64,000 nucleotides of DNA from Bacteroidales bacterium (GTDB lineage: Bacteria > Bacteroidota > Bacteroidia > Bacteroidales > UBA932), in contig JAFRSW010000004.1 of the NCBI GenBank assembly GCA_017427385.1, positions 62,001 to 126,000 on the forward strand, given 5' to 3'. Positions within the stretch are counted from its first letter, which is position 1, and each line of letters starts with the position of its first letter. The notes under the pieces were generated by a model. That model had not been told where the DNA came from. It ran no database searches and worked only from the letters and a program-made list of their open reading frames with translations. Positions 25,777 through 45,176 of this stretch are shown piece after piece. Position numbers and translations under genes: made by a program.

Positions 25777-26774
25777 AAATAGGCCCCGTAGATTTGGGCG
25801 AAAAGCCCGTGCTGCTTGCCCCGATGGAGGATGTGACGGACGTATCGTTCCGCATCCTCTGCCGGGAGCAGGGGGCCGATATGGTCTACACCGAATTCAT
25901 CCCCTCGGACGGTCTCATCCGCGACGCCACCAAGGCTCTCGCCAAGATGAAAACCCTCGAGGAGGAGGCGCCGGTGGGCATACAGATCTACGGACACATC
26001 CCCGAATCTATGGTGGATGCCGCCAGGATGGCGGACAAGGCGGTGGAACTCGTGGGCGGCCACGGGGCGGACGTTATCGACATCAACTTCGGCTGCCCTG
26101 TAACCAAGATCGCAGGCCGCGGAGCCGGTTCCGGAATGATGCGCTATCCCGACAAGATGGTAGCCATCACCAAGGCCGTCGTCGAGGCCGTGGGCAAGCC
26201 GGTCACCGTGAAGACGCGCCTCGGCTGGGACGAGAACAGCAAGATTATCGTGGAGCTTGCCGAGCGCCTGCAAGATGTTGGAATACAGGCACTTACCATC
26301 CACGGCCGCACCCGCTGCCAGATGTACAAGGGGGCTGCGGACTGGACCCTCATCGGCGAGGTGAAGAACAATCCCCGCATGCATATTCCCATCATCGGAA
26401 ACGGCGACATCACCACCCCCCAGCAGGCCCGCGACGCCTTCGACCGCTATGGAGTGGATGGCATAATGATTGGCCGCGCCACCTTCGGGCATCCCTGGCT
26501 CTTCAGGGAGATCAAGCATTTCCTTGCCACCGGCGAAGAACTGCCCCCGCTTTCCATCCAGGAAAAAGTGGCCCTCGCCAAGCGGCAACTGACTCTTTCG
26601 CTTCAGTACAAGGGCGAGCCGCGCGGGATCTACGAGATGCGCAGGCATCTGTCCTGCTACTTCAAGGGCCTGCCGGACTTCAAGGAAACCCGCATGCGCA
26701 TGGTCACCACTCTGGATGTGGCGGAGTTGTCCGAGATTCTGGATGGAATAGCAATTCAATACAGAAATATATGA
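25773..26774 (+). CDS. tRNA-dihydrouridine synthase (DusB type)
   Basis: 333 residues. It reduces uridines in the tRNA D-loop using FMN. Signatures: LLAPMEDVTDVSFR (FMN loop), DINFGCPVTKIAGRGAGSGM with the catalytic Cys context, KPVTVKTRLGWDENS, TIHGRTRCQMYKG (substrate contact), and IPIIGNGDI plus GIMIGRATFGHPWLF. Length is typical of DusB. It is sandwiched between two secreted glycosidase-type genes with 4-base overlaps at both ends (ATGA), so it is presumably carried in their transcript. Confidence 0.94.
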   Translation: MKIGPVDLGEKPVLLAPMEDVTDVSFRILCREQGADMVYTEFIPSDGLIRDATKALAKMKTLEEEAPVGIQIYGHIPESMVDAARMADKAVELVGGHGADVIDINFGCPVTKIAGRGAGSGMMRYPDKMVAITKAVVEAVGKPVTVKTRLGWDENSKIIVELAERLQDVGIQALTIHGRTRCQMYKGAADWTLIGEVKNNPRMHIPIIGNGDITTPQQARDAFDRYGVDGIMIGRATFGHPWLFREIKHFLATGEELPPLSIQEKVALAKRQLTLSLQYKGEPRGIYEMRRHLSCYFKGLPDFKETRMRMVTTLDVAELSEILDGIAIQYRNI

Positions 26775-32600: not shown

Positions 32601-33003
32601 CGACAAGAGCACGGAAAACTGGACAGTCACCAACCCCGGAGCCTACTGGCCCCGCCGGCTATATGCGGCCGCGAATGCCGGCAGTGGTCTTGGAACGATG
32701 AATTCCTACAACGACTACTTCCTCCAGAATGCCGCCTATCTGAGGCTAAAGAACCTTACGCTGGACTACACTTTCCCGAAGAAACTTACAGAGAAAGTGA
32801 ATATAGAAAAGCTCCGCATTTATTTCTCCGGAGAAAACCTGCTGACATTCTCCCCCATCTACAAGCATACCTCCATGTTTGATCCCGAAGTGATCGGCAA
32901 GGGAGATACCGACTTCGGCGGCCAGACTTCCACTACCGCGGGCGACGGGTACAGCTACCCCATGCTCAAGACTTTCACCTTCGGCATTAATCTTACTTTC
33001 TAA
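29674..33003 (+). CDS. SusC/RagA-type TonB-dependent receptor
   Basis: 1109 residues. Signal peptide (about 1-22, ending SALGQ), a carboxypeptidase-regulatory-like beta domain (ISVSGRVTDASTGEPVPGAV to FALALDAE), TonB-box region EETVVVGYGTLKKSQLVGSV, plug domain with RALQGQVPGLNI, LVLIDGVEGELSSVNPDDVE and SVLKDASSSAIYGSRAAYGV, then a long outer-membrane barrel ending in LKTFTFGINLTF with terminal Phe. It imports oligosaccharides with the SusD lid encoded 11 bases downstream. Full length and intact. First gene of the locus; expected to be controlled by the divergent DUF6377 protein. Confidence 0.97.
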   Translation: MRHVFKVVLVVLLSLSCVSALGQKISVSGRVTDASTGEPVPGAVLFVRGESGGAATDNQGVYSFSVDANATLICSCIGYSETEQAVGGRTTVDFALALDAEMLEETVVVGYGTLKKSQLVGSVEQISGEALEDRVNANVSRALQGQVPGLNIFQVDGKPTHGGNIYIRGGATSYTMKKNMNSSTISSYSIGQGGSALVLIDGVEGELSSVNPDDVESVSVLKDASSSAIYGSRAAYGVILVTTKNAKNEKITINYNGAWSLNRRTVMWEDNVITDGLEYTRTFYDFWVGRTETPTAAGALPTKINTFNIPSNYLELFEARRDAGNTDIYDMNGKNYLYFASENWLAKFYKRANTTQTHSMSINGSSKKMSYSLSGRYYTQDGIYKIGNEDYNQYNIRSKVVLHAKDWLTVDNNTYLHHFDYSQPIFSKNNSSVGSQLWQIGMLGLPVMPTNNEDGTYTIGAAASGYEAFVEGNSAQETKSMSVTTTTGVTVEPVKDVFKIRGDISYKFVARHTQRYVAPTSQSIQPGVVTYYVTEADSYKREYNYETNHLSANVVGTWTPKLGEAHRLNVVGGWNLEDHRYDTETILRMGMMYPGMTSFEMFDGTEVTLQQYDSNWRTVGGFARANYTYLGRYILEGSLRYDANSRFPVKQRGGWFPSASAGWRVSEEPWMKPVKGTVDNLKIRANWGSLGNGGISPYTFMETMAVGKTSVIFDVGFVTVAGQPAIVPDSLTWERITTWDLGLDLDMFSNRLSFSGDYYVRYTNDMYSSGPEIPAILGAATPKGNYGQLTTKGWETTLSWRDSFKVAGRDLAYSIKGSLWDSRTWVTQFYNESHNIFDFYEGKELGELWGFRTDGLFMSNEEAAAWYPDRYHNLLTSTTPYAGDIRFLDLDGNKEITAGAGTLEDHGDLDRIGNIMPRYQYGLNIDLKWNGLGLGLFFQGIGHRDWYPSEGSGFFWGGYARAYDYALKDQLDRVILDKSTENWTVTNPGAYWPRRLYAAANAGSGLGTMNSYNDYFLQNAAYLRLKNLTLDYTFPKKLTEKVNIEKLRIYFSGENLLTFSPIYKHTSMFDPEVIGKGDTDFGGQTSTTAGDGYSYPMLKTFTFGINLTF

Positions 33004-33014
33004 ACTACAGGACG

Positions 33015-34832
33015 ATGAAAAAACATATAATAATCATATTTGCAGCGCTTATCGCCTGCTCCTGCAGTGAATGGCTCGAGAGGACTCCTGCCAACAAATT
33101 CGCAGCCGAGACCTTCTTCGCATCTGAGTCCGACCTTGAATTATATGCGAACGGCCTGATCAATTCCGCCCTGCCGGGTGCTTCCGATATGGCTCTCGGC
33201 AGCGACCGTTACACCGATTTCTGCGGCACACGGCAATCCTATGACTTCTTCTGGGGCACATTTACCGCCGCCCAGGCGACCAACTGGAACTCCAGCACCT
33301 GGAGCTTCAACCGCCGTGTGGCGTATATGATAGAGAATATGCCGCGTTGCAAGAACAATGTTTCCTCCGAAATCTACAACCATTACGAAGGTGTGGCCCG
33401 CTTCTGGCGCACGTGGATAACACTCAAGCGCATGAAGGTCTTCGGCGATATCTATTTCATCGATAAGGTCATCCAGCCTTCCGATTCCCTTATACTCTAC
33501 GGCCCGCGCCAGGACAGGGAATACATCTGGCACAGGATGAAGGAAGACCTTGAGTTCGCCTGCGAAAACTGCCTCACTTCCGGCCAGGGCATCAACTCCG
33601 CCGGCAGGGTGTACGTGAACAAATATGTGGCCCTGGCTTTTGCATCGCACGCATTCCTCTTCGAAGGCACATACCGGAAGTACCACAGCGTCAATCCTTC
33701 CACGGGCAAGCCCTGGAACGGGGAATATGAAAGCGCAAACGAATTGCTCTCCCTCGCGGAAAAGTATGCCAAGGAACTTATAGACACAAAGGCGTTCTCG
33801 CTGAACAGCGATTACCGTTCGTTGTTTGTTTCCGCCACCCTTCCCACCGATGAGGTGATATGGGGATGCACTTATTCCAGCGAACTGAGCACGAACCATG
33901 GTGTCACCTACAAGTACTGCTCCACCACCTCCTCTCTCAGCTATTCTCCTACCAAGGAATATGTGAGGATGTTCCTGAAGACCGATGGCAAGCCTGCAGA
34001 AGAGGCGGTGAGCGTGACCAAGGAATTCATTGGCCGCGACAAGCGCCTCGCCGCAACCGTGCTTTCCCCCGGCCAGACCTGGAAACGCCTGAACGGCAGC
34101 AATGAGGAACTACCTCCGAACTGGACCTGGACCTGTGCGGGATATGAGTGGATCAAGTGGGTTCAGCTGGAAGAAGAACCTATGAGTGCGGATAACAAGT
34201 CCTATAACTCCATCCCCATTATCCGTTATGCGGAGGTGCTGCTGAACTATGCCGAAGCTGCCGCGGAACTGGGGCACATGACCCAGACCATCTGGGACCA
34301 GACGATAGGGGCCCTGCGCACCAGGGCAGGAGTCGCCAGCATTTATCCCGGCAGTGCAGGATATGTGGCCGATACATGGCTCCGCAACTACTACACCCTG
34401 GATGTCAAGCATCCTTCCACCCTCACCGACATACAACTGGAGATTCGCCGCGAAAGGGCCACGGAACTCACTCTTGAGGGCCAGAGTCGTTATGACGACC
34501 TGATGCGCTGGTGCCTCGGGGACCTTATCGAGCGCCGCTACAACCACCAGGGATGGAGGGGTATCTATATAACGCCCGAAGAGGCGGCGTCAGGATTCAC
34601 CTGGGCCGGCAAGACATATACGGTGTCTTCCGCCAAGGCCTCGAATGAAACCAATTATAAGATTTCCGGCACTGCCAACAGCAACTGGAGCCTGTCCAAC
34701 GGCACTTACGGCTATCTTATCTACAACTACAAGCTTGTTTGGGATGATATGATGTACACCCATCCGATTCCCCTTTCTGCTCTGAATGTAAATCCCAACC
34801 TCGGCCAGAACGAAGGTTGGCAGTGGATGTAA
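33015..34832 (+). CDS. SusD/RagB-type glycan-binding lipoprotein
   Basis: 605 residues with a short lipoprotein signal (MKKHIIIIFAALIACSC; lipidation at Cys15 or Cys17). SWLERTP-like opening (SEWLERTPANKFAAETFFAS) and LELYANGL are typical, as are the helical TPR units and the C-terminal signatures PIIRYAEVLLNYAEAAAELG, ALRTRAGVASIYP, EIRRERATELTLEGQSRYDD and HPIPLSALNVNPNLGQNEGW. It forms the lid of the SusC transporter at the cell surface. Complete. Confidence 0.97.
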   Translation: MKKHIIIIFAALIACSCSEWLERTPANKFAAETFFASESDLELYANGLINSALPGASDMALGSDRYTDFCGTRQSYDFFWGTFTAAQATNWNSSTWSFNRRVAYMIENMPRCKNNVSSEIYNHYEGVARFWRTWITLKRMKVFGDIYFIDKVIQPSDSLILYGPRQDREYIWHRMKEDLEFACENCLTSGQGINSAGRVYVNKYVALAFASHAFLFEGTYRKYHSVNPSTGKPWNGEYESANELLSLAEKYAKELIDTKAFSLNSDYRSLFVSATLPTDEVIWGCTYSSELSTNHGVTYKYCSTTSSLSYSPTKEYVRMFLKTDGKPAEEAVSVTKEFIGRDKRLAATVLSPGQTWKRLNGSNEELPPNWTWTCAGYEWIKWVQLEEEPMSADNKSYNSIPIIRYAEVLLNYAEAAAELGHMTQTIWDQTIGALRTRAGVASIYPGSAGYVADTWLRNYYTLDVKHPSTLTDIQLEIRRERATELTLEGQSRYDDLMRWCLGDLIERRYNHQGWRGIYITPEEAASGFTWAGKTYTVSSAKASNETNYKISGTANSNWSLSNGTYGYLIYNYKLVWDDMMYTHPIPLSALNVNPNLGQNEGWQWM

Positions 34833-34850
34833 TATAAATAGTCATATACT

Positions 34851-36482
34851 ATGAAAAAGAATTTATTGCGTTTGATCGTTGCAGTTTCTGCGCTGGGTTT
34901 CCTGGCTGCGGGCTGTGAAAAAGATCCGAAAAATGAAGGCAAGGAGGACCAGTTCATCAACGTCAGCCCCGATAAAATCGAGGCCGGCTTTGAAGAAAAA
35001 GTCACAGAAATCACTGTCGAGTCCAACTGCTCATGGACTATCTCCAAGACGGATTCCGAAGGTACGGCCGTAGACTGGGTTAAGTGCGACAAGACCACCG
35101 GAAAAGACAATACCACCTTCAATGTGAAGGTTTTCAAGAACGAAACCGCATCCGCCCGCAGGGCCACCGTAACCCTTGCAAGCGGCGATACCAAAGCCTT
35201 TATCGACGTCTCGCAGGGAGCCAATCCTAATCCGGAAAAACCCGATGACCCCGTTATCCCGGATGATCCTCAGCCCGGCACGGATCCGGAGCCTTACGGA
35301 GATGTTGTCAAACTTGCTTTCGACTTTACCCAGACTCCTTTCGACGGCTGGCCTACAGCCTCAAACTATGATCATACGGAAGGCGGAATCAACTGTGTTT
35401 ATCCGCTTGGAGGAAGGGACTACACCTTTGTGCTGGCCGATTGCGGTGGTGCTGCCAAGGCACAGATGTACTGGGCCGTTGACGGTACCCCACGCCTCGC
35501 TTTCGGCGCCCAGTACCGCTACCTCGGCCTTCCCGCCATTGATGGATATATCCTCTGCTCGGTCGCATGCACCAGCGTTCTGTTGAATGACGCGTCAGCG
35601 TCCATGGCGCCGAAGATGGCCATTACAAACAAGATTGCCGCTTCAGCCGCAGATGCCAAGGCCATAACGGACGACTCTGCGGATATAGTCGCCGGAGGAA
35701 AATTCCAGACATGGACAGCGGGTGGTGGCGGCACCTATACTTATAATCTGACAGGTCTGGCGGTCAACACCGTATATTACATATATGCGCTGGTGAAAGG
35801 AGCGGTTTCCACTCTTGAACTGACTTACTACAAAGAAGGAACGACCCCTCCCGCCCCGGATCCCGGAACCGATCCCGGCACCGACCCTGATCCCGGCACT
35901 GACCCTGATCCCGGAACTGATCCTGACCCCGGCACGGATCCCTATCAGCCGTCTGCCGATGCCATCGCCCTGAGTTTCGACTTTACGGTCACGCCTCTGG
36001 AGGGTTGGCCTACGGAGGCTAAAGGATATGACACATCAACCGGAAAAGAGTGCGTCTATCCTCTGGAAGGAAAAGATTACTCTTTCCTTCTTGCCGACTG
36101 CGGAGGTGCTGCCAATGCCAACATGTTCTGGAATCCCGGCCCTCCCGCATTCCTCTCGTTCAATGCTCAATACCGTTATCTTGGACTTCCCACAGTGGAA
36201 GGACTCAGGCTCAAGAGGGTTTACTGCGAAAACGTGTATCTTTCGACCCAGGTTCCCAAGTTCTACATAACCAACAAGGTCGCAGCATCAGCAAACGACG
36301 CGAAAGCGATCACCAATGATTCCGATGATGTCGTGGATGGCGGAGAGTTCCAAACCTGGGACGCTGCCGGCGGTGGAAAGTACACATACACCCTTAGCGG
36401 TACGGAACTTAATACCAGATACTACATCTATGCGCAGGTAAAGGGCGCCGTTTCCAAACTTGTACTCACCTATGACAAATAG
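34851..36482 (+). CDS. Surface lipoprotein: BACON domain plus two copies of unassigned domain X
   Basis: 543 residues. Lipoprotein signal with Cys22 (ALGFLAAGC). Residues about 36-123 look like a BACON domain (INVSPDKIEAGF, ESNCSWTISK, RRATVTLASGDTKAFIDVSQ). Then come two copies of a domain I cannot name, about 150-327 and 371-542, separated by a Pro/Asp/Gly/Thr repeat linker (about 335-366, PGTDPD units). Each copy has FDF, GWPT, CVYPL.G.DY(T/S)F, LADCGGA, QYRYLGLP and an end LELTY/LVLTY. Position after SusD is that of a surface glycan-binding protein, so a carbohydrate-binding role for domain X is inferred. The 3' end overlaps the next gene by 11 bases. Confidence 0.85.
   Translation: MKKNLLRLIVAVSALGFLAAGCEKDPKNEGKEDQFINVSPDKIEAGFEEKVTEITVESNCSWTISKTDSEGTAVDWVKCDKTTGKDNTTFNVKVFKNETASARRATVTLASGDTKAFIDVSQGANPNPEKPDDPVIPDDPQPGTDPEPYGDVVKLAFDFTQTPFDGWPTASNYDHTEGGINCVYPLGGRDYTFVLADCGGAAKAQMYWAVDGTPRLAFGAQYRYLGLPAIDGYILCSVACTSVLLNDASASMAPKMAITNKIAASAADAKAITDDSADIVAGGKFQTWTAGGGGTYTYNLTGLAVNTVYYIYALVKGAVSTLELTYYKEGTTPPAPDPGTDPGTDPDPGTDPDPGTDPDPGTDPYQPSADAIALSFDFTVTPLEGWPTEAKGYDTSTGKECVYPLEGKDYSFLLADCGGAANANMFWNPGPPAFLSFNAQYRYLGLPTVEGLRLKRVYCENVYLSTQVPKFYITNKVAASANDAKAITNDSDDVVDGGEFQTWDAAGGGKYTYTLSGTELNTRYYIYAQVKGAVSKLVLTYDK
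35858..35942 (+). repeat. Short tandem repeat encoding a Pro-Gly-Thr-Asp linker
   Basis: Degenerate 12/18-base units encoding DPGTDP and DPGTDPDPGT repeats, about 28 residues, joining the two domain X copies. Units differ at third codon positions, so it is maintained as protein rather than as DNA sequence. Copy number could vary between strains. Confidence 0.8.
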
Positions 36483-37677
36483 GCTATCAATAATCCTTGT
36501 TGCTATCGCAGGGGCCCTTCTGGGCTCCTGCGGAGAGAAGGACACACCGCCGGTTGCAGAATCCCTTGCCGTCGAGCCCTCGGAAATCAATGCCGTCAAG
36601 GACATTGCAAGCTACAAGATCGATATCGTTTCCAACACATCGTGGACGGCATCTTTTGCAGGAGAATCCGGAGAAGAGGCTACCTGGGGAGTTCTTAACC
36701 GCACTTCCGGCACGGGGGACGCGAGCCTGACGTTGCGTCTTTACGAAAATAAATACAAGAGCAGCCGGGCAGCAACCCTGAACGTGAAAACAAAGGGTGG
36801 ACTGTCTGCGAGCATAGCGGTCACGCAGGAAGGAGACTCCGGCTCCCAGCAGGAGCAGGCCACCATAAAACTGCGGGCAGGCACATATAACATGCGCGGA
36901 AGCTGGCTGACGGAGAGCGACGCCAACAACTCATGGGAAAACCGCAAAACGCGCATGCAGCAGTCGCTGCAGGAATGCGCTTTCGACATATTTGGCATGC
37001 AGGAGGTTGGGACCGCCCAGCAATCCTGGCTCAATTCCACCTTTGCCGACACCTGGACATTCAAATTCTTCAGCCCTTATTCCCAGAATGGCAGCGGTGA
37101 CAGGGGACAGGGAATCGCCTGGAGGACGGACTCCTTCACCATGAGCAACTGGCACTATTTCTGGCTTGGGAGCGACCACGGCACGATGAGCACCAATGAT
37201 ACCGGTACTAACGGAAGTTTCAAGCGTGGCGGATGCTGCTGCGTGCTCACGCATAAAGCCAGCGGAGTGAAGCTATTCTTCATGAACACTCACGGATGCA
37301 TGAATGCCGATAAGAGAGAAGAGTATGCCGCACAGTATGAGCAGATGGAGAAACTTTACAATGTGGACGGCCTTCCCTCCTTCTTTGTCGGAGACATGAA
37401 TTCCTCGGAGTCCTCGGAATTGGGTTCTCCCTACATGGTTTATACTTCTTATTGGAAAGACTCCTTCAATGAAGCGCCGGCAAACAGGAAATCCGGCAGC
37501 ACCAATACGTTCAACGGCTATTCTTCAACTAGCGGAAAGAGCCGCATAGACATGATATTCTTCCGCGGAGGAAACCCCATATCGATCGAAACATATGCGT
37601 GCAAGAACACGCTTTACGGAGGGTTGTACGCCTCCGACCACTTCCCCGTGTATGCAGATGTATCGATCACAAACTGA
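36472..37677 (+). CDS. EEP-fold phosphoesterase-like lipoprotein with BACON domain (EEP1)
   Basis: 401 residues from ATG 36472, chosen because it begins the lipoprotein signal (MTNRLSIILVAIAGALLGSC, Cys20); it overlaps the previous stop by 11 bases. A BACON-like domain (about 30-121) is followed by an endonuclease/exonuclease/phosphatase domain (about 135-400) with AGTYNMR (N140), MQEVG (Glu178), NTHG (His274), VGDMN (Asp308, Asn310), SRIDMIFF and SDHFPVY (Asp389, His390). All metal and catalytic positions of the fold are present. The family cleaves phosphodiesters or phosphomonoesters; substrate here unknown. Export to the surface points to a phosphorylated glycan, lipid or nucleic acid. Confidence 0.87.
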   Translation: MTNRLSIILVAIAGALLGSCGEKDTPPVAESLAVEPSEINAVKDIASYKIDIVSNTSWTASFAGESGEEATWGVLNRTSGTGDASLTLRLYENKYKSSRAATLNVKTKGGLSASIAVTQEGDSGSQQEQATIKLRAGTYNMRGSWLTESDANNSWENRKTRMQQSLQECAFDIFGMQEVGTAQQSWLNSTFADTWTFKFFSPYSQNGSGDRGQGIAWRTDSFTMSNWHYFWLGSDHGTMSTNDTGTNGSFKRGGCCCVLTHKASGVKLFFMNTHGCMNADKREEYAAQYEQMEKLYNVDGLPSFFVGDMNSSESSELGSPYMVYTSYWKDSFNEAPANRKSGSTNTFNGYSSTSGKSRIDMIFFRGGNPISIETYACKNTLYGGLYASDHFPVYADVSITN

Positions 37678-37683
37678 TTTATA

Positions 37684-39039
37684 ATGAAAAAAAGCTTTAT
37701 AATAGCACTTGCGTCGCTTGCCTGCGCGTCTGTAATACAGGCAAAAGATATAGACCTCAAGAAGTACGGAGCAAAGGCCGATGGCAAGACCAAGGTTACC
37801 AAAGTGCTTCAGAAGGCCATTGATGAGGTTTCAAATGCCGGTGGCGGAAAGGTTGTCCTCTCTGGAGGGACCTTCCTCGTGACCCCCTTCGAGATTAAAA
37901 GCGGGGTGGAACTGGTCATCGACGCCGATGCCGTCCTCCTGGCTTCGCCCGATCTCGCAGATTATCCGGAACGCACCGATGTGCGGCATTATGATTCCGA
38001 GGCGATGCCACGCTTCAGGAACGTTTCCCTGATTTATGCCGATGAGGCCGAGAACATAGCCATCACCGGCCGCGGCGTAATCGACTGCAACGGAACATGT
38101 TTCACCAAACCGAAGGAAGGAGACAATTGGACGGGCTGGCACTTTGTCCGCACCGTGCCGCGCAAACAATCCCTCCCCAGGGTGGTATTCTTTGCCGGAT
38201 GCAAGAATGTGAGGATTACCGATGTGACCATGCGCAACCAGCCTGCCGGATGGAGTTATTGGATTCACGACTGCGATTATGTCCATTTCGACCGCTGCAA
38301 CATCCTTGCAGACGTCCGCTATCCCAACAACGACGGCATTCACCTGAACTGCTCGCGCGATGTTACGGTGTCCAACTGCATCATAGAATCCGGCGATGAT
38401 TCTATCATCATCCGCGCCAACAGCCGTTCCCTAAAGGAGGATAAGGCCTGCGAACGTGTGACCATCACCAACTGCGTACTTCGCAGCTGGTCGGCGGCAA
38501 TTCGCCTCGGATGGACAAACGATGGGATAATACGCGACTGCTTGCTTTCCAATCTGGTTATTTATGACTCTTCGAAAGGGGTGAGCATAGATCTGCCGGA
38601 ATACACGGCTCGAAACCCTCAGGATGCATCTAACGACTATGGCAGGGAAGCTACCCTGATTGAGAATATCCACTTCTCCAACATCCGCATGGATAAGGTA
38701 TTCTACCCCGTTTACGGCCGGGTTCATGAAAATCCGGAGGTCCTTGCTGCGGCTATCCGCAATCTTCGCTTTACCGACATGCAGGTGGAATCTATGTATA
38801 TGCCTTATCTGCAGGGCAGGAAAGACTGTCCTTTCCAGGATATTCTTTTCAGCAACTGCCGGTTTACGCGTCTTACCCAGGCAGATATGCCTGATGTGAA
38901 CCGACATGGTCCCGTGCCGAAGAAAATGCCCGAAATGTTTGTACATGTGGAGAGAGTCAACTTCGAGAATTGTTCATTCACCTTTACCGGCGACTTCAAT
39001 TTCAAGAACAATTACGATTGGACTGCAGCGGACAGATAA
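37684..39039 (+). CDS. GH28-like beta-helix glycosidase, exported
   Basis: 451 residues with a signal peptide (MKKSFIIALASLACASVIQA). The opening DIDLKKYGAKADGKTKVTKV and AGGGKVVLSGGTFLVTPFEI are those of GH28/pectate-lyase-superfamily right-handed beta helices. NNDGIHLNCSRDVT (N-x-D) and IESGDDSIIIRAN (Asp-Asp) match two GH28 motifs. The usual GHG segment and RxK pair are not apparent; the corresponding region reads RSWSAAIRLGWTNDG. It may thus be a divergent member acting on uronate or rhamnose-containing chains. It is 6 bases after EEP1 and 4 bases before EEP2. Confidence 0.83.
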   Translation: MKKSFIIALASLACASVIQAKDIDLKKYGAKADGKTKVTKVLQKAIDEVSNAGGGKVVLSGGTFLVTPFEIKSGVELVIDADAVLLASPDLADYPERTDVRHYDSEAMPRFRNVSLIYADEAENIAITGRGVIDCNGTCFTKPKEGDNWTGWHFVRTVPRKQSLPRVVFFAGCKNVRITDVTMRNQPAGWSYWIHDCDYVHFDRCNILADVRYPNNDGIHLNCSRDVTVSNCIIESGDDSIIIRANSRSLKEDKACERVTITNCVLRSWSAAIRLGWTNDGIIRDCLLSNLVIYDSSKGVSIDLPEYTARNPQDASNDYGREATLIENIHFSNIRMDKVFYPVYGRVHENPEVLAAAIRNLRFTDMQVESMYMPYLQGRKDCPFQDILFSNCRFTRLTQADMPDVNRHGPVPKKMPEMFVHVERVNFENCSFTFTGDFNFKNNYDWTAADR

Positions 39040-39043
39040 TGCC

Positions 39044-39940
39044 ATGGTTATGCGAAAGATATTCTTTATGATGGCCGCCACCATGGCAACTCTCTTTCTC
39101 GCCTGTGCAATTTGTCCGGCGAAGAAGCCGGCACAGCTCCGTGTCGGTTCATATAACCTGCGTCGTGCTCCGCTGGATGCGAAAAGCCCGGACAATAACT
39201 GGCAGGCCCGTGAGCCGAGGGTAATCCAGTCCATCCTGGCCTGCAAATTCGATATATGCGGCTTGCAGGAAGTGGATTCTAAGGAGCAGGAAAGTGTTCC
39301 CCGTCTGCTCGCTGAAAACGGGGCGGATTATGATTGCTATTTCTTCGGCCCTTATGCGGAAGATGGCCATGGCACCAAGGCACACGGCGTAATCTGGCGC
39401 AAAGATCGTTTCGCCCTCGTGGGAGAACCCCATTATTTCTGGACATCCAATCCTCCGGAGAAAAGACAAATTAACGACGGAGGTAAGTTCATGAGGGGTG
39501 GTTTTTGCCTGACGCTGAGGGAGGTGAAAGGTCGCCGCTATTATTTCGTGATGGTGACGCACGCTCCTCTCAACAAGCAGGACCATGCCGCCGGTGCCCA
39601 TATCTTCATCGATATGGAAAAGAAATACAATCCGAAAGGGTATCCCTCTTTTTTCGTTGGTGATTTCAATGCCAGGGAAAGCGACGACGCTTCGGCCACC
39701 TATAGGACTTGGTGGACGGATTCTTTTCACGCCTTCGATGCCAACCCCGAATTTCGCACCGGCCCTCAAGGCACATTCAATGGTTGGAAACCGGAACCGC
39801 TCCCAACCAACCGCATAGATTTCATTTACTACAAGGGAAAAGGAGTGACGCCGCTTCGTTATGTTTGCGACGACACCCTTTACGGCGGGCTCGTAGCCTC
39901 CGACCATTTCCCCATATACGTAGATTTCAGAATCAAATAG
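39044..39940 (+). CDS. EEP-fold phosphoesterase-like lipoprotein (EEP2)
   Basis: 298 residues from ATG 39044 (a second ATG at 39050 is also possible). Signal with lipobox near LFLAC (Cys21). The EEP domain follows directly without a BACON domain: LRVGSYNLRR, CGLQEVD (catalytic Glu), MVTHAPL, FFVGDFNARESDDA, NRIDFIYYKGKGVTP, LVASDHFPIYVDF. Motif set complete. Sequence similarity to EEP1 and EEP3 is clear (NNW..RE.RV.QSI, YFW, RGG). Same transcript as GH28 (4-base gap). Confidence 0.87.
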   Translation: MVMRKIFFMMAATMATLFLACAICPAKKPAQLRVGSYNLRRAPLDAKSPDNNWQAREPRVIQSILACKFDICGLQEVDSKEQESVPRLLAENGADYDCYFFGPYAEDGHGTKAHGVIWRKDRFALVGEPHYFWTSNPPEKRQINDGGKFMRGGFCLTLREVKGRRYYFVMVTHAPLNKQDHAAGAHIFIDMEKKYNPKGYPSFFVGDFNARESDDASATYRTWWTDSFHAFDANPEFRTGPQGTFNGWKPEPLPTNRIDFIYYKGKGVTPLRYVCDDTLYGGLVASDHFPIYVDFRIK

Positions 39941-39951
39941 CATAAAACACT

Positions 39952-40089
39952 ATGAAAACAAAAGAGTATCTGCCACCGGCAGTTCAAGTTTTATCCATGA
40001 AGACAGAAGGTCTTGTGTGTACCAGTGACATCATCCTTTCTACGGTAGCCACCGAAGAATGGGATGTAGTTGATTTATCCACCCTTTAA
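39952..40089 (+). CDS. 45-residue peptide preceding a fimbrillin-like gene (peptide 1)
   Basis: ATG 39952 to TAA 40089, 45 residues, beginning MKTKEYLPPAVQVLSMKTEG and continuing LVCTSDIILSTVATEEWDVV to the end DLSTL. No signal peptide. It is clearly related to the peptide at 41542-41679: same length, a shared pattern Y.xP...VL..k.EG(L/I)VC.S, and an acidic Trp-containing tail (EEWDVVDL versus EDWDEVNL). The stop TAA shares its last A with an ATG of the fimbrillin-like frame. Such short frames are often left out of annotations. Function unknown; a peptide precursor or an assembly partner of the following lipoprotein is conceivable. Confidence 0.75.
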   Translation: MKTKEYLPPAVQVLSMKTEGLVCTSDIILSTVATEEWDVVDLSTL

Positions 40090-40100
40090 TGCAGACGATT

Positions 40101-41525
40101 ATGAAAAGGAACAGATTATTCATATTTGTTGCAGCCGTCGCAGCGATGGCTGCCTGCACGAAAACGGCCGATCCGGAGAATGCTTCCAACGAATATATAG
40201 TCGATGGTGTGCGTACCGTGGTTTTCAAGGCTGTGATGGGAGGTGTCGCCACGCCGGATTCAAAAGCCGTACTTGATCTTAACGACAAGAGCAAACCGCA
40301 GACTTTCTGGGAAAATGACGATGAAATTACCGTCTATACCTCCGCCGATTATTCGGGGTCTGTTGCAATGTCCATGCGTGGTTATGAATTCAGTACGGAC
40401 CTGGTCTCCAATTCCACCTCCGCCACATTTACTTACACGGGGGATGGCTGCACCAGCGGAGACTATCTTGCCATTTATCCCGCTGCAAACGAGAACAGGG
40501 CGATCAATTATACTCCCACTGATGGGGCGTATAGGATGGCGGCTGTCGATGTGCCTACAAATCAGACTCTTGTGGCAGGCAGTTTCGATAAGAGCGCTGC
40601 TGTCATGACCGCCTATGCTCCTGCGGGATCCAGCACCTTGAACTTCAAGAATGCGACCGCCCTCATCAAGTTCCAGGTGGCTGATGCGGATATCAAGGGC
40701 GGTAGCATAGTCGCAGACGGTGCCGACCGTATCTCCGGAAGATTCCGTGCCGATGTCAGCACGGCATCTCCCTACGAACCGGTACTGTCAGAGTATAGCG
40801 CCACGGGCGTGGTTGAACAGAACTATGTGAACTTCACCCTCGACGGCGGCGCATCTCTTTCTGTTGGAACGGATTACTATGTGGCTGTACGCCCTACCGA
40901 CCTTACAGACGGTTTCAAGGTTTACTTGAATGGATATCTGGTGAAAACTATCAGCAAATCCGCTTGCGCCTCCTTTGCAAGGAATAAGGTTTACAATCTG
41001 GGCACATTGACAAAGGCCGGTGCCGAGGAAATGGTCTTGCCTTTTGATTTTTCCGGCACTCCGCCCACGGTGGACCCTGCATGGCCTACTACATACGGAT
41101 ACACACATGTTGATGGCGGTATTGAACGGGTATATCCGCTGTATGGAACGAATTACTCTTTCTGCCTTGCCGATTGTGGCGGAGCGGGCAAAGCAAATGT
41201 TTGTTGGTACAGTACGGGGCTCTTATTCAACGCGTCACAGCGTTATTTCGGCCTCCCCGCAATTCCGGGATACAAACTGACCAAGATAGACTGCTACAAA
41301 AAAAGTGGCGGCCTCACAGCAAAATTTGAAATAGTGGAAAGCATAGTTGGCAACACTTCGGACGCTCCTGCTGATATTGTGACAGGTGGGGAGGCGCAGG
41401 TATTCAACGAGAATGGCAAATGGTTCACTTACGAATTGTCCGGGACGGCGGCCAACACCAGATACTATATCTATTGCATGGTGAAAGGGACTATTGCCGC
41501 CATCACGCTAACCTACGAACAGTAA
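40101..41525 (+). CDS. Fimbrillin-like lipoprotein with C-terminal domain X (protein B)
   Basis: 474 residues from ATG 40101, which begins the lipoprotein signal MKRNRLFIFVAAVAAMAAC (Cys19); an ATG at 40089 overlapping the peptide 1 stop would add four residues. Residues about 35-305 fit the Mfa-like fimbrillin pattern (VVFKAVMG, FWENDDEITVYT, YEFSTDLVS, ATFTYTGDG, LAIYPA, YRMAAVDVPTNQTLVAGSF, LNFKNATALIKFQV, YYVAVRPTDL, NKVYNLGTL). Residues 311-473 are one domain X (FDF, AWPT, VYPLYGTNYSFCLADCGGAG, RYFGLPAIPGYKL, ITLTYEQ). It may be a surface adhesin or binding subunit rather than a polymerising pilin. Confidence 0.82.
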   Translation: MKRNRLFIFVAAVAAMAACTKTADPENASNEYIVDGVRTVVFKAVMGGVATPDSKAVLDLNDKSKPQTFWENDDEITVYTSADYSGSVAMSMRGYEFSTDLVSNSTSATFTYTGDGCTSGDYLAIYPAANENRAINYTPTDGAYRMAAVDVPTNQTLVAGSFDKSAAVMTAYAPAGSSTLNFKNATALIKFQVADADIKGGSIVADGADRISGRFRADVSTASPYEPVLSEYSATGVVEQNYVNFTLDGGASLSVGTDYYVAVRPTDLTDGFKVYLNGYLVKTISKSACASFARNKVYNLGTLTKAGAEEMVLPFDFSGTPPTVDPAWPTTYGYTHVDGGIERVYPLYGTNYSFCLADCGGAGKANVCWYSTGLLFNASQRYFGLPAIPGYKLTKIDCYKKSGGLTAKFEIVESIVGNTSDAPADIVTGGEAQVFNENGKWFTYELSGTAANTRYYIYCMVKGTIAAITLTYEQ

Positions 41526-41541
41526 CGACAACAATATAATC

Positions 41542-41679
41542 ATGAAAGAAATAAAAAGCAATATGTCCGGTGTGGAATACACCGCTCCGCAGGCCGAAGT
41601 CCTGGTCTTGAAATACGAAGGCATAGTATGCGCAAGCAAAAAATCTTCTTTTGAAGATTGGGACGAAGTAAACCTATAA
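41542..41679 (+). CDS. 45-residue peptide preceding a fimbrillin-like gene (peptide 2)
   Basis: ATG 41542 to TAA 41679, 45 residues, beginning MKEIKSNMSGVEYTAPQAEV and containing LVLKYEGIVCASKKSSFEDW then DEVNL. Paralogue of peptide 1 (39952-40089): identical length, same order of features (aromatic/Pro start, VL, EG-V-C-S core with one Cys, Trp-Asp acidic end). It sits 16 bases after protein B and 11 bases before protein C. No signal peptide or membrane segment. Function unknown. Confidence 0.75.
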   Translation: MKEIKSNMSGVEYTAPQAEVLVLKYEGIVCASKKSSFEDWDEVNL

Positions 41680-41690
41680 TGTGAACAGAC

Positions 41691-43133
41691 ATGAAAACAA
41701 GAAGATATATACTTTTTGCAATGGCGGCACTTGCATTCGCCTCATGCGAAAAAGCCATTGAAAAGACCGCGGAAAACGAACCCTCCGGCGAAATCAGCAC
41801 GATTACTTTCAGTGCCACCATGGACGGTAAGGCGCCTGACTCCAAGGCCGTCATCGGCACGAATCCGGAAACCGGAAAACCACTGAATTTCTGGGTAGAC
41901 GGGGATGAGATTACCGTTTATTCGCAAGGGAAAGGTGATTCGGGGACTCAATCCGGATTCACATTCTCTACAACCCTTGTGGCAAATGCTTCATCAGCTG
42001 ATTTTACCTACACCGGAGACGGATGGGTTGACGGAACTGCATATATGGCAATCTATCCTGCTACGGGTAGCAGGGCAGTCAACTTCACTGCACAAGAAAC
42101 GGTTGCTGCAAGTGGCGAGTATTTCTACAGAATGGCTGCCGTTGATGTCCCCTACTCCCAAACACTGGTTGCAAACAGTTTTGACCGCAATGCTATGGTA
42201 GCGACAGCTTACAGTACCGACAATACCTTCGCCTTCAAAAGCGCCGTGGCGCTTCTTAAATTCCAGGTGTCGGGCACAGATGTGGTTTCCGGAACTATAG
42301 TAAGTGGAAATGATGAGTCTATTTCAGGGCGTTTCCGTGCGGACCTGAGTGCTACATCCCCTTACGAGCCGGTCTTGTATTCATATCAACCGACGTGGGA
42401 GCATAATTTCATCTATTTTACAATCGATGACAGTACTCCACTTTCTACCGGGACAAATTATTATGTGGCGGTCCGTCCCACAACTCTTTCCAGTGGTTTC
42501 AAAATCTATCTGAACGGCAAATTAGTCAAGACCTTCACCCCTACGGAACTGGTACGTAACAAGATTTATAATCTCGGCACCCTGTCCGTTCCTGTAAGCA
42601 CCACAGAAATGGCATTGGGCTTCAATTTCGGGAGGACCGCACTTACGGGATGGCCTACGGTAAAGGATGACGCTACAAAATCTGAAGGGGGGAAAACATG
42701 TACTTTCCCTCTTTATGGCGCAAGTTATTCTTTTTTGCTTGCGGATCCTACAGGGGCAAGCGGAGCAAATATATGGTGGAACTCCGGCATCGGCATTCAG
42801 TTTAATGCGGCACAACGTTATCTGGGTCTTCCGGCTATCGAGAACTGGAAACTCAGCCATGTGACGGTAGTGCATAAAGATGCAGTTACTAAAAAATCAA
42901 TTATTTATGGTATTGTAAGCAATAGGACAAACGCCAGCACCCCTCCAACCTCTGTCAGCTCTCCTGAAACTGTTGAGGCAGAAGCTACGACGGTTACCAC
43001 GACAAGAGGTAATCATATCTCTTGTGACTTCGCAATTCCCTCCCCTGTTGCCAATACGCAGTACTATGTATATCGTTCGGGAGCAGGTGCCAGTTACGTC
43101 CCTATGGTCCTTCTTACCTACGTCCCCGAGTGA
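41691..43133 (+). CDS. Fimbrillin-like lipoprotein with C-terminal domain X (protein C)
   Basis: 480 residues; lipoprotein signal MKTRRYILFAMAALAFASC (Cys19). Paralogue of protein B over the full length: fimbrillin-like part (STITFSATMDG, FWVDGDEITVYS, FTFSTTLVAN, ADFTYTGDGW, YMAIYPATGS, YRMAAVDVPYSQTLVANSF, LLKFQVSG, ISGRFRADLSATSPYEPVLY, YYVAVRPTTL, NKIYNLGTLSV), then domain X (about 307-478: FNFGRTALTGWPT, CTFPLYGASYSFLLADPTGA, AAQRYLGLPAIENWKLSHV, MVLLTYVPE). The second Cys of domain X is replaced by Pro. The TGA stop at 43131 lies at the natural end of the domain, and the next frame continues in phase. Confidence 0.82.
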   Translation: MKTRRYILFAMAALAFASCEKAIEKTAENEPSGEISTITFSATMDGKAPDSKAVIGTNPETGKPLNFWVDGDEITVYSQGKGDSGTQSGFTFSTTLVANASSADFTYTGDGWVDGTAYMAIYPATGSRAVNFTAQETVAASGEYFYRMAAVDVPYSQTLVANSFDRNAMVATAYSTDNTFAFKSAVALLKFQVSGTDVVSGTIVSGNDESISGRFRADLSATSPYEPVLYSYQPTWEHNFIYFTIDDSTPLSTGTNYYVAVRPTTLSSGFKIYLNGKLVKTFTPTELVRNKIYNLGTLSVPVSTTEMALGFNFGRTALTGWPTVKDDATKSEGGKTCTFPLYGASYSFLLADPTGASGANIWWNSGIGIQFNAAQRYLGLPAIENWKLSHVTVVHKDAVTKKSIIYGIVSNRTNASTPPTSVSSPETVEAEATTVTTTRGNHISCDFAIPSPVANTQYYVYRSGAGASYVPMVLLTYVPE

Positions 43134-43154
43134 AGGGCAGTTTACGATGATGTC

Positions 43155-43937
43155 TTGCGCGTTGGGACGTACAATGTGCGTGTAAGCAAAGACGACGAAG
43201 ACGATCCGCAGAACAACTGGGAAAACCGGAAGACCCGCGTAGTGCAGTCCATCCGGGACAACGACTTCGACTTCTTCGGCCTCAACGAATGCAGCAGCGG
43301 AATCCAGACCTATCTGAGCACGCAGCTTGCCGACACCTACGCCTTCCAGTTCTTCAGCCCCTACTCCCAGGACGGGGCTGGAGACAAGGCTCAGGGGCTG
43401 GCGTATAAAAAGGATGATTTCACCCTGACGGACTGGCACTATTTCTGGCTCTCCGATACGCCTGGTACGATGGTTACCAATGATGGCACTATGAATCGCG
43501 GTGGGTGCTGCGGAGTGCTGACCAAAGGAGGGAAGAGCATTTTCGTGATGGTCACCCATGGGGCTTTGGATGCCGATGTGAGGGCGGATTACGCTCATGT
43601 ATATGAAGATATGGAGAAACTTTACAACACTTCCGGATATCCTTCAGTTTTCGTCGGCGACATGAACGCCCGCCCGGCCGATGATGCATCCGTGGCGTAC
43701 AGGACATACTGGACTGATGCTTATGACGGGGCCGGTCCCTCCGGCAGGCTGGGCCCTTTTGCGACCTACAATGCTTTCGACCTAAGCCGTAACATGTACT
43801 CCAACGCCAGCCGGATAGATTATATTTATTACCGGGGAGGGATTACTCCGCTGAATTACGTGTGCAACGGAATACTTTACGGTGGATACTATGCTTCGGA
43901 CCATCTTCCATTGTATTCAGATATGAAAATAGATTGA
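43155..43937 (+). CDS. EEP-fold phosphoesterase-like protein without signal peptide (EEP3)
   Basis: 260 residues if started at TTG 43155; no in-frame ATG precedes the domain. The EEP domain is complete: LRVGTYNVRV, FFGLNECSSG (Glu), MVTHGALDAD, SVFVGDMNARPADDA, SRIDYIYYRGGITP, YYASDHLPLYSDM. Unlike EEP1 and EEP2 it has no signal peptide. The frame is open back to the TGA that ends protein C (43131-43133), in the same phase, with only 7 codons between. It could be a 5'-truncated gene, a product of stop-codon reinitiation, or the second half of a fused protein. The conserved core suggests recent or continuing selection. Confidence 0.7.
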   Translation: MRVGTYNVRVSKDDEDDPQNNWENRKTRVVQSIRDNDFDFFGLNECSSGIQTYLSTQLADTYAFQFFSPYSQDGAGDKAQGLAYKKDDFTLTDWHYFWLSDTPGTMVTNDGTMNRGGCCGVLTKGGKSIFVMVTHGALDADVRADYAHVYEDMEKLYNTSGYPSVFVGDMNARPADDASVAYRTYWTDAYDGAGPSGRLGPFATYNAFDLSRNMYSNASRIDYIYYRGGITPLNYVCNGILYGGYYASDHLPLYSDMKID

Positions 43938-43943
43938 TACGGA

Positions 43944-45176
43944 ATGAAACGATACTATAAATGGGAGGTCCTGCTGTTGCTCTGGATGGCATATCTGCTG
44001 AACCAGGGCGACAGGCAGGTGTTCAACACGGTGCTGCCCGCAATCAGGGATGCACTCAACCTCACGGACACCTCGGTCGGCTTAATCGCCACCATCTTCA
44101 ACCTGTTCTATGCCATTATGGTGCCTATAGGCGGATGGGCGGGCGACCGCTTCTCCCGCAAGTGGGTTACAACCATCAGTATTCTGTTCTGGAGCGTCGC
44201 AACCATGTTCACTGGACTCGCTACGAGTTTCATGTGGCTGGTGGTGCTGCGCAGCGTTGCCACGGGCGGAGGTGAGGCCTTCTTCGGCCCGGCGAACTAT
44301 TCGCTGCTGGGCCAATACCATACGGATACCCGCGCACGTGCGATGTCCATCCACCAGACGGCATATTACGTCGGAGTCATCCTTGCTGGCTGGCTCGCCG
44401 GGCTCATCGCCGACCGCCTCGGCTGGAAATACTCCTTCATCATCTTCGGCGCCGCCGGCATCATCTGGGGAATCCTTATGATCCTGCGCCTGCGCGACTA
44501 CCCGTCCACATCCGTCGAAGAGGCGGAAGTGCGGGATCGAAAACCCGCCTTTTTCGACGGCTTCCGCACCGTCTTCACAACCCCCACCGCCCTCATGCTC
44601 ACCATCGGCTTCAGCGGCCTCATCTTCGTAATCACGGGCTACATGACCTGGGTCCCCGCCTATCTGCAGGAGGAATTCGGGCAGAGCCAGGCAGCCGCGG
44701 GCTTCAACTCCATGTTCTGGACCTACGTTGCCGCCTTCATCGGTGTGCTGCTTGCCGGCACGCTTTCGGATAAGCTGGCCTCCCGCAGCCACAAGGTGCG
44801 CATGCAACTCCAGGCGGCGGGGCTCCTGGGCGGAGCGGTATTTCTATTTCTGATGGGAGGCCATCCCGCCCTGTGGGTGCTTTATGTCAGCTTTGCCGGA
44901 TGGGGCTTCTTCCGGGCATTCTTTGATGCCAACACCTATTCTGTGTTGTACGACGTTACCCCCGAACGCCTGCATGCATCCTGCTCCAGTGCAATGATAA
45001 TGACCGGATTTGCTGTCGGGGCACTGGCGCCCGTAATCCTGGGCGCCCTGAAAGAAAGCATGGGCAGCCTCAGCGCCACCTTCCCCATACTGGCGGTAAT
45101 CTGGGTGGTGTGCAGTGTGCTGATGTTCATAGTTGCGCGAACCAGTTATCAAAAAGATTATAACAAGAATCACTGA
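43944..45176 (+). CDS. Major facilitator superfamily transporter
   Basis: 410 residues, about 12 hydrophobic helices. MFS signatures: GGWAGDRFSRKWVTT in the loop after helix 2 and GTLSDKLASRSHK in the equivalent loop of the second half. The opening WEVLLLLWMAYLLNQGDRQV and the GGGEAFFGPANYSLLGQYHT segment resemble sugar-acid/anion-type members (ACS or similar). Within this locus it is the likely inner-membrane importer for the released sugar or sugar acid. The start follows EEP3 by 6 bases; the stop is 1 base before the isomerase-like gene. Confidence 0.88.
   Translation: MKRYYKWEVLLLLWMAYLLNQGDRQVFNTVLPAIRDALNLTDTSVGLIATIFNLFYAIMVPIGGWAGDRFSRKWVTTISILFWSVATMFTGLATSFMWLVVLRSVATGGGEAFFGPANYSLLGQYHTDTRARAMSIHQTAYYVGVILAGWLAGLIADRLGWKYSFIIFGAAGIIWGILMILRLRDYPSTSVEEAEVRDRKPAFFDGFRTVFTTPTALMLTIGFSGLIFVITGYMTWVPAYLQEEFGQSQAAAGFNSMFWTYVAAFIGVLLAGTLSDKLASRSHKVRMQLQAAGLLGGAVFLFLMGGHPALWVLYVSFAGWGFFRAFFDANTYSVLYDVTPERLHASCSSAMIMTGFAVGALAPVILGALKESMGSLSATFPILAVIWVVCSVLMFIVARTSYQKDYNKNH

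What the first reader, a model, noticed from the sequence alone, without database searches (positions are those of the whole stretch)
34851..43133. Unassigned domain X in four copies across three lipoproteins of the locus
A domain of about 165 residues occurs twice in the BACON lipoprotein (residues about 150-327 and 371-542) and once at the C-terminus of each fimbrillin-like lipoprotein (40101-41525, 41691-43133). Shared elements in order: F(D/N)F, a WPT turn, (V/F)YPL or TFPL before a (D/N/S)Y(T/S)F strand, LAD(C/P).GA, a W two to seven residues later, (Q/A)xRY(L/F)GLP, and a closing L.LTY-type strand. I cannot match this to a named family. Its use as a repeated module on surface lipoproteins next to SusCD suggests glycan binding. 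This is the strongest candidate here for something undescribed.
Basis: partly seen in the sequence, partly recalled or inferred. Interest (0 to 1): 0.75.

Follow-up and report, generated by a model that had tools for sequence, protein, structure and literature searches.

The report
Surface domain ending at leaky stop
A protein module that matches no family in the libraries searched occurs four times in a sugar-uptake gene cluster of an unnamed Bacteroidales bacterium, and in one copy it ends at a UGA stop codon that ribosomes probably read through to add an enzyme domain.

Summary
Four copies of a ~165-residue domain X lie in three lipoproteins beside SusCD (BLASTP E 3e-19 to 7e-71). No Pfam, NCBIfam or PDB match reaches significance over X. 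X is concentrated in one Bacteroidales genus: 63 of 400 genus genomes match; in an order sample of 294, three genomes of other genera do. Structure prediction was off; fold and glycan binding are untested.

The larger finding is at the end of copy C. Its gene stops at TGA (43131-43133), and the same frame continues as a leaderless EEP hydrolase domain (43134-43937). All 10 such joints found, in 9 genomes, are TGA followed by A. Codons behind the stop are under protein-level selection; one genome has no ATG/GTG/TTG before the EEP domain.

An unrelated nuclease (Endonuclease_NS) also follows in-frame TGAs in this genus: 25 of 30 loci read, 24 of them with a downstream hairpin showing compensatory changes. 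The window's own genome has one directly after a fifth X. Programmed UGA readthrough is the best explanation; no experiment shows it.

The parts
29674..33003 (+). SusC-like TonB-dependent transporter
   Evidence: ORF; homologues head the locus in relatives; name recalled from sequence, no family search run
33015..34832 (+). SusD-like lipoprotein
   Evidence: ORF; same place in relatives; name recalled, no family search run
34851..36482 (+). Gene A: lipoprotein BACON-X-X, ends TAG
   Evidence: Pfam BACON E 1.4e-5; two X; stop read
35304..35831 (+). domain X copy A1
   Evidence: profile match 204 bits
35961..36476 (+). domain X copy A2
   Evidence: profile match 204 bits
36472..37677 (+). BACON-EEP lipoprotein (EEP1), own leader
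   Evidence: Pfam Exo_endo_phos E 1.5e-10; BACON below cut-off, E 0.0022; start read
37684..39039 (+). GH28-like glycoside hydrolase
   Evidence: Pfam E 1.9e-19
39044..39940 (+). EEP protein (EEP2), own leader by eye
   Evidence: Pfam Exo_endo_phos E 5.4e-11; start read
40089..41525 (+). Gene B: fimbrillin-like lipoprotein with C-terminal X, ends TAA, no in-frame EEP behind
41028..41519 (+). domain X copy B
   Evidence: profile match 183 bits
41691..43133 (+). Gene C: fimbrillin-like lipoprotein with C-terminal X, ends TGA
42606..43124 (+). domain X copy C
   Evidence: profile match 133 bits
43131..43133 (+). in-frame TGA, next bases AGG: proposed readthrough codon
   Evidence: 10 of 10 homologous joints are TGA followed by A and a purine
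43134..43937 (+). leaderless EEP hydrolase domain (EEP3) in the frame of gene C
   Evidence: Pfam Exo_endo_phos E 6.7e-9 on 43155-43934; frame read; one clade with 9 other post-TGA EEPs
43944..45176 (+). MFS transporter of the same cluster
   Evidence: Pfam MFS_1 E 6.3e-56; follows EEP3 in L059, L068 and L069 too

Best explanation
X is a ~165-residue, probably beta-sandwich, module of secreted lipoproteins, found mainly in one Bacteroidales genus, and probably a ligand-binding module (both inferred). In gene C, X is the last domain of the short product. Part of the ribosomes read the UGA at 43131-43133, perhaps with a near-cognate tRNA such as tRNA-Trp helped by the A that follows (inferred), and continue into the EEP domain. 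The result is a mixture of lipoproteins: Fim-X and Fim-X-EEP, with the hydrolase exported on the Fim-X leader. In the same genus a second nuclease family sits behind an in-frame UGA too, mostly with a hairpin six nucleotides behind it. Shown by sequence: the conserved TGA, the shared frame, selection on the codons behind it, the missing leader, start codons missing in some genomes, and the hairpin's compensatory changes in the second family. Inferred: that readthrough happens, its rate, the residue inserted, the substrate, and glycan binding by X.
For: (1) All 10 X-EEP3 joints found, in 9 genomes, have exactly one stop, TGA. (2) Of 65 genes ending in X, the 10 with leaderless EEP behind are all TGA-A; of the other 55, 9 end in TGA, 4 of them TGA-A (Fisher p 5e-7 and 6e-9; rows are not independent). 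(3) In the 7 joints of equal spacing, post-stop codons 2-6 have pS 0.75 and pN 0.11 (codons 1-5: 0.71, 0.16), like the EEP (0.63, 0.12) and the end of X (0.55, 0.13). (4) The TGA-to-EEP spacer has three lengths, 18, 24 and 27 nt, all multiples of 3. (5) L076 has no ATG/GTG/TTG in the first 32 codons behind the TGA; L069 and L079 have none before codon 8, inside the first EEP strand. (6) The 10 post-TGA EEPs form one clade (100/98); the other 41 EEP rows have N-terminal sequence in front, mostly with a leader visible by eye. (7) Endonuclease_NS: 25 of 30 loci have TGA at the same joint, none TAA or TAG there, 5 have no stop; the hairpin covaries. (8) UGA followed by A is reported as prone to tRNA-Trp misreading in E. 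coli (PMC5289835, passage).
Against: No ribosome profiling, proteomics or reporter data. The EEP3 joints have no conserved RNA structure and the window joint no match to the hairpin model, so the second family supports the window case by analogy. The 10 EEP3 joints are one clade, so the TGA may go back to one event. 9 of 10 joints have an ATG, GTG or TTG within 8 codons of the TGA, 5 of them (GTG or TTG) just before R-V-G (read by eye). 4 of 55 other X genes end in TGA-A without EEP behind. The low synonymous divergence of the hairpin (0.06) holds for a 9-locus subgroup in which nonsynonymous divergence is also low (0.02); over all 27 rows it is 0.46 against 0.63-0.71. Two hairpin sites (G032, G287) lead into closed frames.
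Confidence: 0.66

Rival explanations
1. Termination and reinitiation: Fim-X ends at the TGA and the EEP domain is translated as a separate, leaderless cytosolic protein from a start just behind it.
For: Genes of the cluster are tightly packed or overlap. 9 of 10 joints have an ATG, GTG or TTG within 8 codons of the TGA: TTG codon 8 in the window, ATG codon 4 in L063, GTG codons 5-8 elsewhere; 5 of 10 have one just before R-V-G (by eye). Termination-reinitiation is known in bacteria (PMC6728339, search listing with start of abstract only).
Against: None of ATG/GTG/TTG before codon 33 in L076 and none before codon 8 in L069 and L079 (rarer start codons not considered). The codons in front of the candidate starts are under protein selection and spacer lengths keep the frame. 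Other EEPs of these loci have N-terminal sequence in front, mostly a visible leader. A leaderless Endonuclease_NS in the cytoplasm would be expected to harm the cell (inference).
Confidence: 0.15
2. The TGA (with its hairpin in the nuclease family) marks a cassette border or recombination site; the downstream module is silent until recombined.
For: In the Endonuclease_NS loci the upstream domain varies while TGA, linker and nuclease stay; a hairpin-forming inverted repeat can be a DNA-level site; in the 9-locus subgroup the hairpin stretch is nearly identical at all codon positions.
Against: The frame is open from the joint to the nuclease motif in all 25 loci with TGA; fusions without a stop exist; in the EEP3 family the upstream partner is Fim-X in all 10 cases and there is no conserved hairpin.
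Confidence: 0.1
3. Selenocysteine insertion or a dedicated UGA-reading tRNA.
For: The codon is UGA and a hairpin follows it in the nuclease family.
Against: 0 of 9 genomes have a tRNA-Sec over Rfam's cut-off; 5 of 14 control genomes do. The 41 tRNA matches of G023 (97% complete, with both kinds of joint) were all read by ARAGORN and none has anticodon UCA. TGA also ends ordinary genes here: 48 of 135 long ORFs, the 10 joints included.
Confidence: 0.03
4. Gene split, pseudogene or assembly error: the TGA is a nonsense change and EEP3 a remnant.
For: A single stop between two domains; the named relatives are metagenome-assembled.
Against: Same codon at the same joint in 10 places of 9 genomes; EEP3 keeps its motifs in the window (N-V-R, N-E-C, G-D-M-N, S-D-H-L-P) and pN/pS is about 0.19 over codons 7-60.
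Confidence: 0.04

Closest known systems
Programmed UGA readthrough of viruses (phage Q-beta coat/A1; alphaviruses with a downstream hairpin) (recalled)
   Same: Leaky UGA in frame gives a minority C-terminally extended protein; in the nuclease family a hairpin lies a few nucleotides behind the UGA.
   Different: Here chromosomal bacterial lipoprotein genes, an enzyme domain as the extension, two unrelated enzyme families; no expression data.
CS3 pilus genes of E. coli, amber codon bypass (Jalajakumari 1989; seen only as a reference entry in PMC1914089)
   Same: A stop codon bypassed in a bacterial surface-structure gene.
   Different: Amber, not UGA. Further details not seen.
Bacterial selenoprotein UGA with SECIS hairpin (recalled)
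   Same: UGA with a hairpin right behind it.
   Different: No tRNA-Sec over cut-off; the codon lies between two domains.
BACON domain and SusE/SusF-type surface glycan-binding proteins (recalled)
   Same: Gene A lies right after SusD and has a BACON domain.
   Different: X has no significant sequence relation to any Pfam or PDB entry.
Mfa_like_1 / fimbrillins (PF13149)
   Same: 3 of 27 N-terminal parts touch the model, E 1.3e-4 at best.
   Different: Genes B and C themselves have no such hit.

Membership tests
Any named Pfam/NCBIfam domain (for X) | profile match above the curated cut-off over X | tested here: not met
   best: Invasin_D3 at the end of X1, E 0.0011, 19.9 bits against cut-off 33; 22 isolated copies: best E 0.0069. 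NCBIfam: only sub-threshold stretches in gene A (19.4 bits against 1459)
Known structure (for X) | significant sequence-profile match to a PDB chain | tested here: not met
   best E 0.43 with 22 rows, 0.21 with 66 rows
Known fold (for X) | predicted structure matching a known fold | not testable with these tools
   Structure prediction switched off
Carbohydrate-binding module | measured binding to a glycan | not testable with these tools
   only context: after SusD, with BACON
Programmed stop-codon readthrough | same stop codon at the same place in homologues of several species | tested here: met
   TGA in 10 of 10 EEP3 joints; in 25 of 30 Endonuclease_NS loci, no stop in the other 5
Programmed stop-codon readthrough | protein-level selection immediately behind the stop, frame kept | tested here: met
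   pN/pS 0.15-0.25 for post-stop codons in 7 of the 10 EEP3 joints; spacers 18, 24, 27 nt over all 10
Programmed stop-codon readthrough | homologues aligned across the stop | tested here: inconclusive
   Endonuclease_NS: 5 loci without a stop, one (L221) alike on both sides of the joint of L212 by eye; EEP3: no version without the stop was found
Programmed stop-codon readthrough | stimulatory RNA element or leaky context | tested here: inconclusive
   hairpin in 24 of 25 Endonuclease_NS joints; EEP3 has only the UGA-A context and no conserved structure
Programmed stop-codon readthrough | fusion protein observed | not testable with these tools
   no expression data
Selenoprotein | tRNA-Sec in the genome | tested here: not met
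   0 of 9 genomes over cut-off; 5 of 14 controls over it
EEP superfamily (EEP3) | Pfam Exo_endo_phos match above cut-off | tested here: met
   36.3 bits, cut-off 24.5
DNA/RNA non-specific endonuclease (second family) | Pfam PF01223 match above cut-off | tested here: met
   154 and 131 bits for L053, L056; 109.5 and 120.2 bits for L242 (own genome) and L244; cut-off 23; the other loci were judged by the R-G-H motif only

The most novel reading that the evidence does not exclude
One Bacteroidales genus has a recurrent, selenocysteine-independent UGA-readthrough device in its chromosome: surface lipoproteins ending in X or other modules carry an optional hydrolase or nuclease behind a UGA, in one family with a covarying hairpin after a six-nucleotide spacer, so that the ratio of binder to enzyme on the cell surface is set, and perhaps regulated, at translation.
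Probability: 0.5. Interest if true: 0.9.

Novelty: new variant of a known kind. Interest (0 to 1): 0.8.

Why it matters
Conserved stop-codon readthrough other than selenocysteine and pyrrolysine is hardly known in prokaryotic genes: a screen of 328 complete prokaryotic genomes reported almost no novel candidates (PMC1914089, passages), and that paper notes that families whose members are all interrupted will be annotated as two genes. A later study argues that in-frame stops in bacterial genes are widespread (PMC7918605, passages). Here two unrelated enzymes of one genus show the pattern, one with a covarying hairpin. If true, apparent 'leaderless nucleases' of this genus are parts of surface proteins, and a simple reporter can test it. 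X itself is a domain with no family name in the libraries searched and a testable ligand question.

Tried and rejected
Structure prediction of X: switched off, so no fold search either. Profile searches of X against the PDB: nothing significant. X against a second jelly-roll-like stretch of the mosaic proteins: only one sequence was collected, hhalign probability 0.4%, no conclusion. Plasmid collection: no X. Selenocysteine: disfavoured; the sub-threshold matches of the own genome that were laid out (8 of 9) are ordinary tRNAs. A suppressor tRNA with UCA: not among the 41 tRNA matches of G023. The own genome's tRNA-Trp (CCA) looks ordinary by eye, with a G-U top pair in the anticodon stem. RNA structure behind the EEP3 TGA: none conserved; z-scores +1.5 to -2.2 in the 8 of 10 sites folded. 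Literature for EEP enzymes in PULs: 3 papers held the terms, none on point from the listing. Stops that the tool reported and I then read: G267's TGA and TAA lie in front of an EEP with its own leader, not behind X; the TAA of G172 and G165 and the TAG of G269 are the nuclease's own end; G347's TGA likewise; G418's EEP has no X in front. In one search one row, L220 with TAA, is a chance R-G-H in another frame and was dropped. L243 and L247 are hairpin sites with closed frames.
Full report
WHAT WAS CHECKED. BLASTP among them gives 31-59% identity and E-values of 2.6e-19 to 7.2e-71. The 4-row alignment has 41 invariant columns, among them W-P-T, L-A-D, R-Y and G-L-P, and L-T-Y. No Pfam or NCBIfam model covers X above its cut-off. 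The nearest is Invasin_D3 over the last ~50 residues (E 0.0011 in gene A; 6 of 22 copies at E up to 1, best 0.0069). Profiles of 22 and 66 rows find nothing significant in the PDB (best E 0.43 and 0.21).

DISTRIBUTION OF X. With the 4-row profile, 63 of 400 genomes of the window's genus match at E <= 1e-3; the weakest of these, at E about 1e-4, match only part of the profile. In an order sample of 294 genomes 4 match at 1e-5 with the 66-row profile: the own genome and 3 of other genera. Six named loci were found, all titled Bacteroidales; three titles name goat or water-buffalo rumen or omasum. In the window and 47 loci an iterated profile finds 90 matches, 86 after two duplicate loci are dropped. 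Architectures: BACON-X-X, BACON-X, lipoprotein-X (fimbrillin-like, weakly supported: 3 of 27 touch Mfa_like_1), lipoprotein-X-DUF4886 without a stop in L060, and probably L071, cut at its start, and 897-1586-residue proteins with OB-fold, BACON, Big or Fn3 parts, X at the end or inside.

THE LOCUS. Relatives show at least two layouts. In the window's layout, SusC and SusD are followed by a BACON-X gene and BACON-EEP1: 16 other loci have these two genes next to each other and L064 has a Fim-X gene between them. In the other layout (for instance L059, L067, L068, L069) an X protein, mostly with a BACON protein before it, precedes SusC. Further members, not all in every locus, are a TPR regulator with DUF6377 on the other strand, GH28 or a ~1000-residue EEP protein (DUF6259-EEP where tested, L067), Fim-X genes, EEP3, MFS, an isomerase-like protein and a ROK protein.

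THE JOINT BEHIND COPY C. In the window, gene C ends at TGA 43131-43133, and the same frame continues without another stop through an EEP domain to 43937. Nine further joints of the same kind lie in eight other genomes: L063 twice, L059, L067, L068, L069, L076, L079, L080. A read-through profile searched over 398 family and 399 genus genomes (overlapping samples) gives, among matches that include the main part of X and EEP, these ten and no others, each with exactly one TGA; one is cut by a contig end. Shorter matches that begin near or behind the joint are other EEP proteins where I read them (window EEP1; G267 and G418); the rest were not read one by one. In all ten joints the base behind TGA is A and the next a purine, although the encoded residue varies (R, K, S, N).

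WHY THE EEP FRAME SEEMS TO BE TRANSLATED THROUGH THE STOP. In the seven joints with equal spacing, codons 2-6 behind the stop have pS 0.75 and pN 0.11, codons 1-5 0.71 and 0.16; EEP codons 7-60 have 0.63 and 0.12, the end of X 0.55 and 0.13 (three of ten joints left out because their spacers differ). Spacers to the first EEP strand are 18, 24 or 27 nt. L076 has no ATG, GTG or TTG in the first 32 codons; L069 and L079 have none before codon 8, inside the first strand. On the other side, 9 of 10 joints have such a codon within the first 8, and 5 of 10 have GTG or TTG just before R-V-G, so reinitiation is not excluded everywhere. The ten post-TGA EEPs form one clade (100/98) among 51 EEP rows; the other 41 have N-terminal sequence in front of the EEP. 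That class was set by position; leaders were judged by eye where the printed residues show them, and no signal-peptide program was run. The 27 lipoprotein-X genes printed all start with a lipoprotein-type leader by eye. So EEP3 alone would lack an export leader, while a readthrough product would have one.

STOP USAGE. Of 65 genes that end in X, the 10 with EEP3 behind them are all TGA-A; the other 55 end in TAA 35, TAG 11, TGA 9, of which 4 TGA-A. Fisher's p is 5e-7 for TGA and 6e-9 for TGA-A, but the ten are one clade, so these are not independent trials. In the window and the eight other loci, 135 long ORFs end in TAA 53, TGA 48, TAG 34, the ten joints included.

A SECOND, UNRELATED NUCLEASE. 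Two other TGA-ending X genes (L053, L056) are followed in frame by a glycine-rich linker, an Fn3-like part and Endonuclease_NS (154 and 131 bits). A read-through profile over 400 genus genomes lists 40 places with exactly one TGA before the list is cut, 2 with one TAA and 1 with one TAG. Read afterwards, those TAA and TAG codons and the TGA of G347 are the nuclease's own end, not the joint; the joints of G269 and G023 are TGA, and G172, G165:C18 and G347 show no stop there. Of the 30 loci laid out, 25 have TGA directly before the linker, none TAA or TAG, and 5 no stop (4 with a leader visible; the frame of L230 runs off the locus). The upstream domain varies. L221, without a stop, is alike by eye on both sides of the joint of L212. 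In 17 genomes of other genera 12 matches are listed, in 10 genomes, none with a stop inside, though most start behind the joint.

THE HAIRPIN. In 20 of the 25 TGA joints a stem of 7-8 pairs begins after a six-nucleotide spacer (seven in L227). RNAalifold finds the same 7-bp stem unprompted. Pair counts: 99.2% of cells pair; 9 cells in 2 pairs change on both sides; covariation 0.236 against 0.092 in shuffles (0 of 500 as high); 22 of 500 shuffles reach the 2 changed pairs and 16 of 500 the pair types; sliding the partner drops pairing to 38-63%. Four further joints share a different hairpin whose three compensated pairs all come from one row, L217 (9 of 500 shuffles as high). L213 has neither. 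In a nine-locus subgroup pS is 0.064 in the hairpin codons against 0.49 and 0.59 in the Fn3 and nuclease parts, but pN is low there too (0.016), and over all 27 rows pS is 0.46 against 0.63 and 0.71, so recent shared descent of the stretch may explain part of it. A covariance model, with a capped first look of 150 candidates a genome, finds 13 sites at E < 1e-3 in 20 genomes. Seven are training sites. Of six others, four open into the nuclease (G000:C8, G396:C23, G359:C21, G379:C22) and two close after 4 and 35 codons. The G000 site is in the window's own genome, directly behind its fifth X copy. The window joint has no such hairpin and the EEP3 joints no conserved structure. The two families share the TGA and the architecture, not the hairpin.

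MECHANISM. The best reading is leaky UGA decoding. UGA is the stop most often read through, and UGA followed by A is particularly prone to misreading by tRNA-Trp in E. coli (PMC5289835, passages, which cites Engelberg-Kulka 1981). No tRNA-Sec reaches the cut-off in nine genomes, and the 41 tRNA matches of the 97% complete G023, which has both kinds of joint, include no UCA anticodon. Rate, inserted residue and regulation are unknown. Function is inferred: a surface binder, part of which carries a hydrolase. The EEP substrate is unknown; nucleic acid and a phosphorylated glycan are both possible.

NOVELTY. A 2007 screen of 328 complete genomes reported almost no novel candidates and warned that operon neighbours with spacing divisible by three mimic readthrough (PMC1914089, passages). 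A 2021 study argues that in-frame stops are widespread in bacterial genes (PMC7918605, passages). My searches (listings, with passages of five papers read: PMC5289835, PMC13092985, PMC1914089, PMC8211752, PMC7918605) showed nothing on this genus or these enzymes; they cover open-licence PMC papers only. No tool named the genus; 'Cryptobacteroides' was my guess.

Noticed in passing
G000:C8:34004-34048 (L084:8004-8048; L242): In the window's own genome a 1586-residue protein with a lipoprotein-type leader by eye, ending in a fifth X, is followed by TGA, the hairpin, Fn3-like repeats and Endonuclease_NS in frame.
   Followed up: yes
L204-L233: In-frame TGA before Endonuclease_NS recurs across the genus with varying upstream domains (25 of 30 loci read); it may deserve its own study.
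   Followed up: partly
L060:11467-13839; L071:1-1650: Lipoprotein-X joined without a stop to a DUF4886 domain, a natural example of X followed by another domain in one protein (L071 is cut at its start).
   Followed up: no
L243, L247: Two TGA-hairpin sites whose frames close after 4 and 35 codons, apparently remnants of the module.
   Followed up: partly
window 46635-48503: 623-residue protein of the cluster with no Pfam match; a homologue, whole or cut, lies in L059, L067, L068 and L069.
   Followed up: no
window 26771-27940: WbsX-type (PF14307) protein beside the cluster, upstream of the DUF6377 regulator.
   Followed up: no
L067:5965-8958: 998-residue protein joining DUF6259 and an EEP domain; EEP proteins of about 1000 residues stand at a like place in nine other loci.
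   Followed up: no
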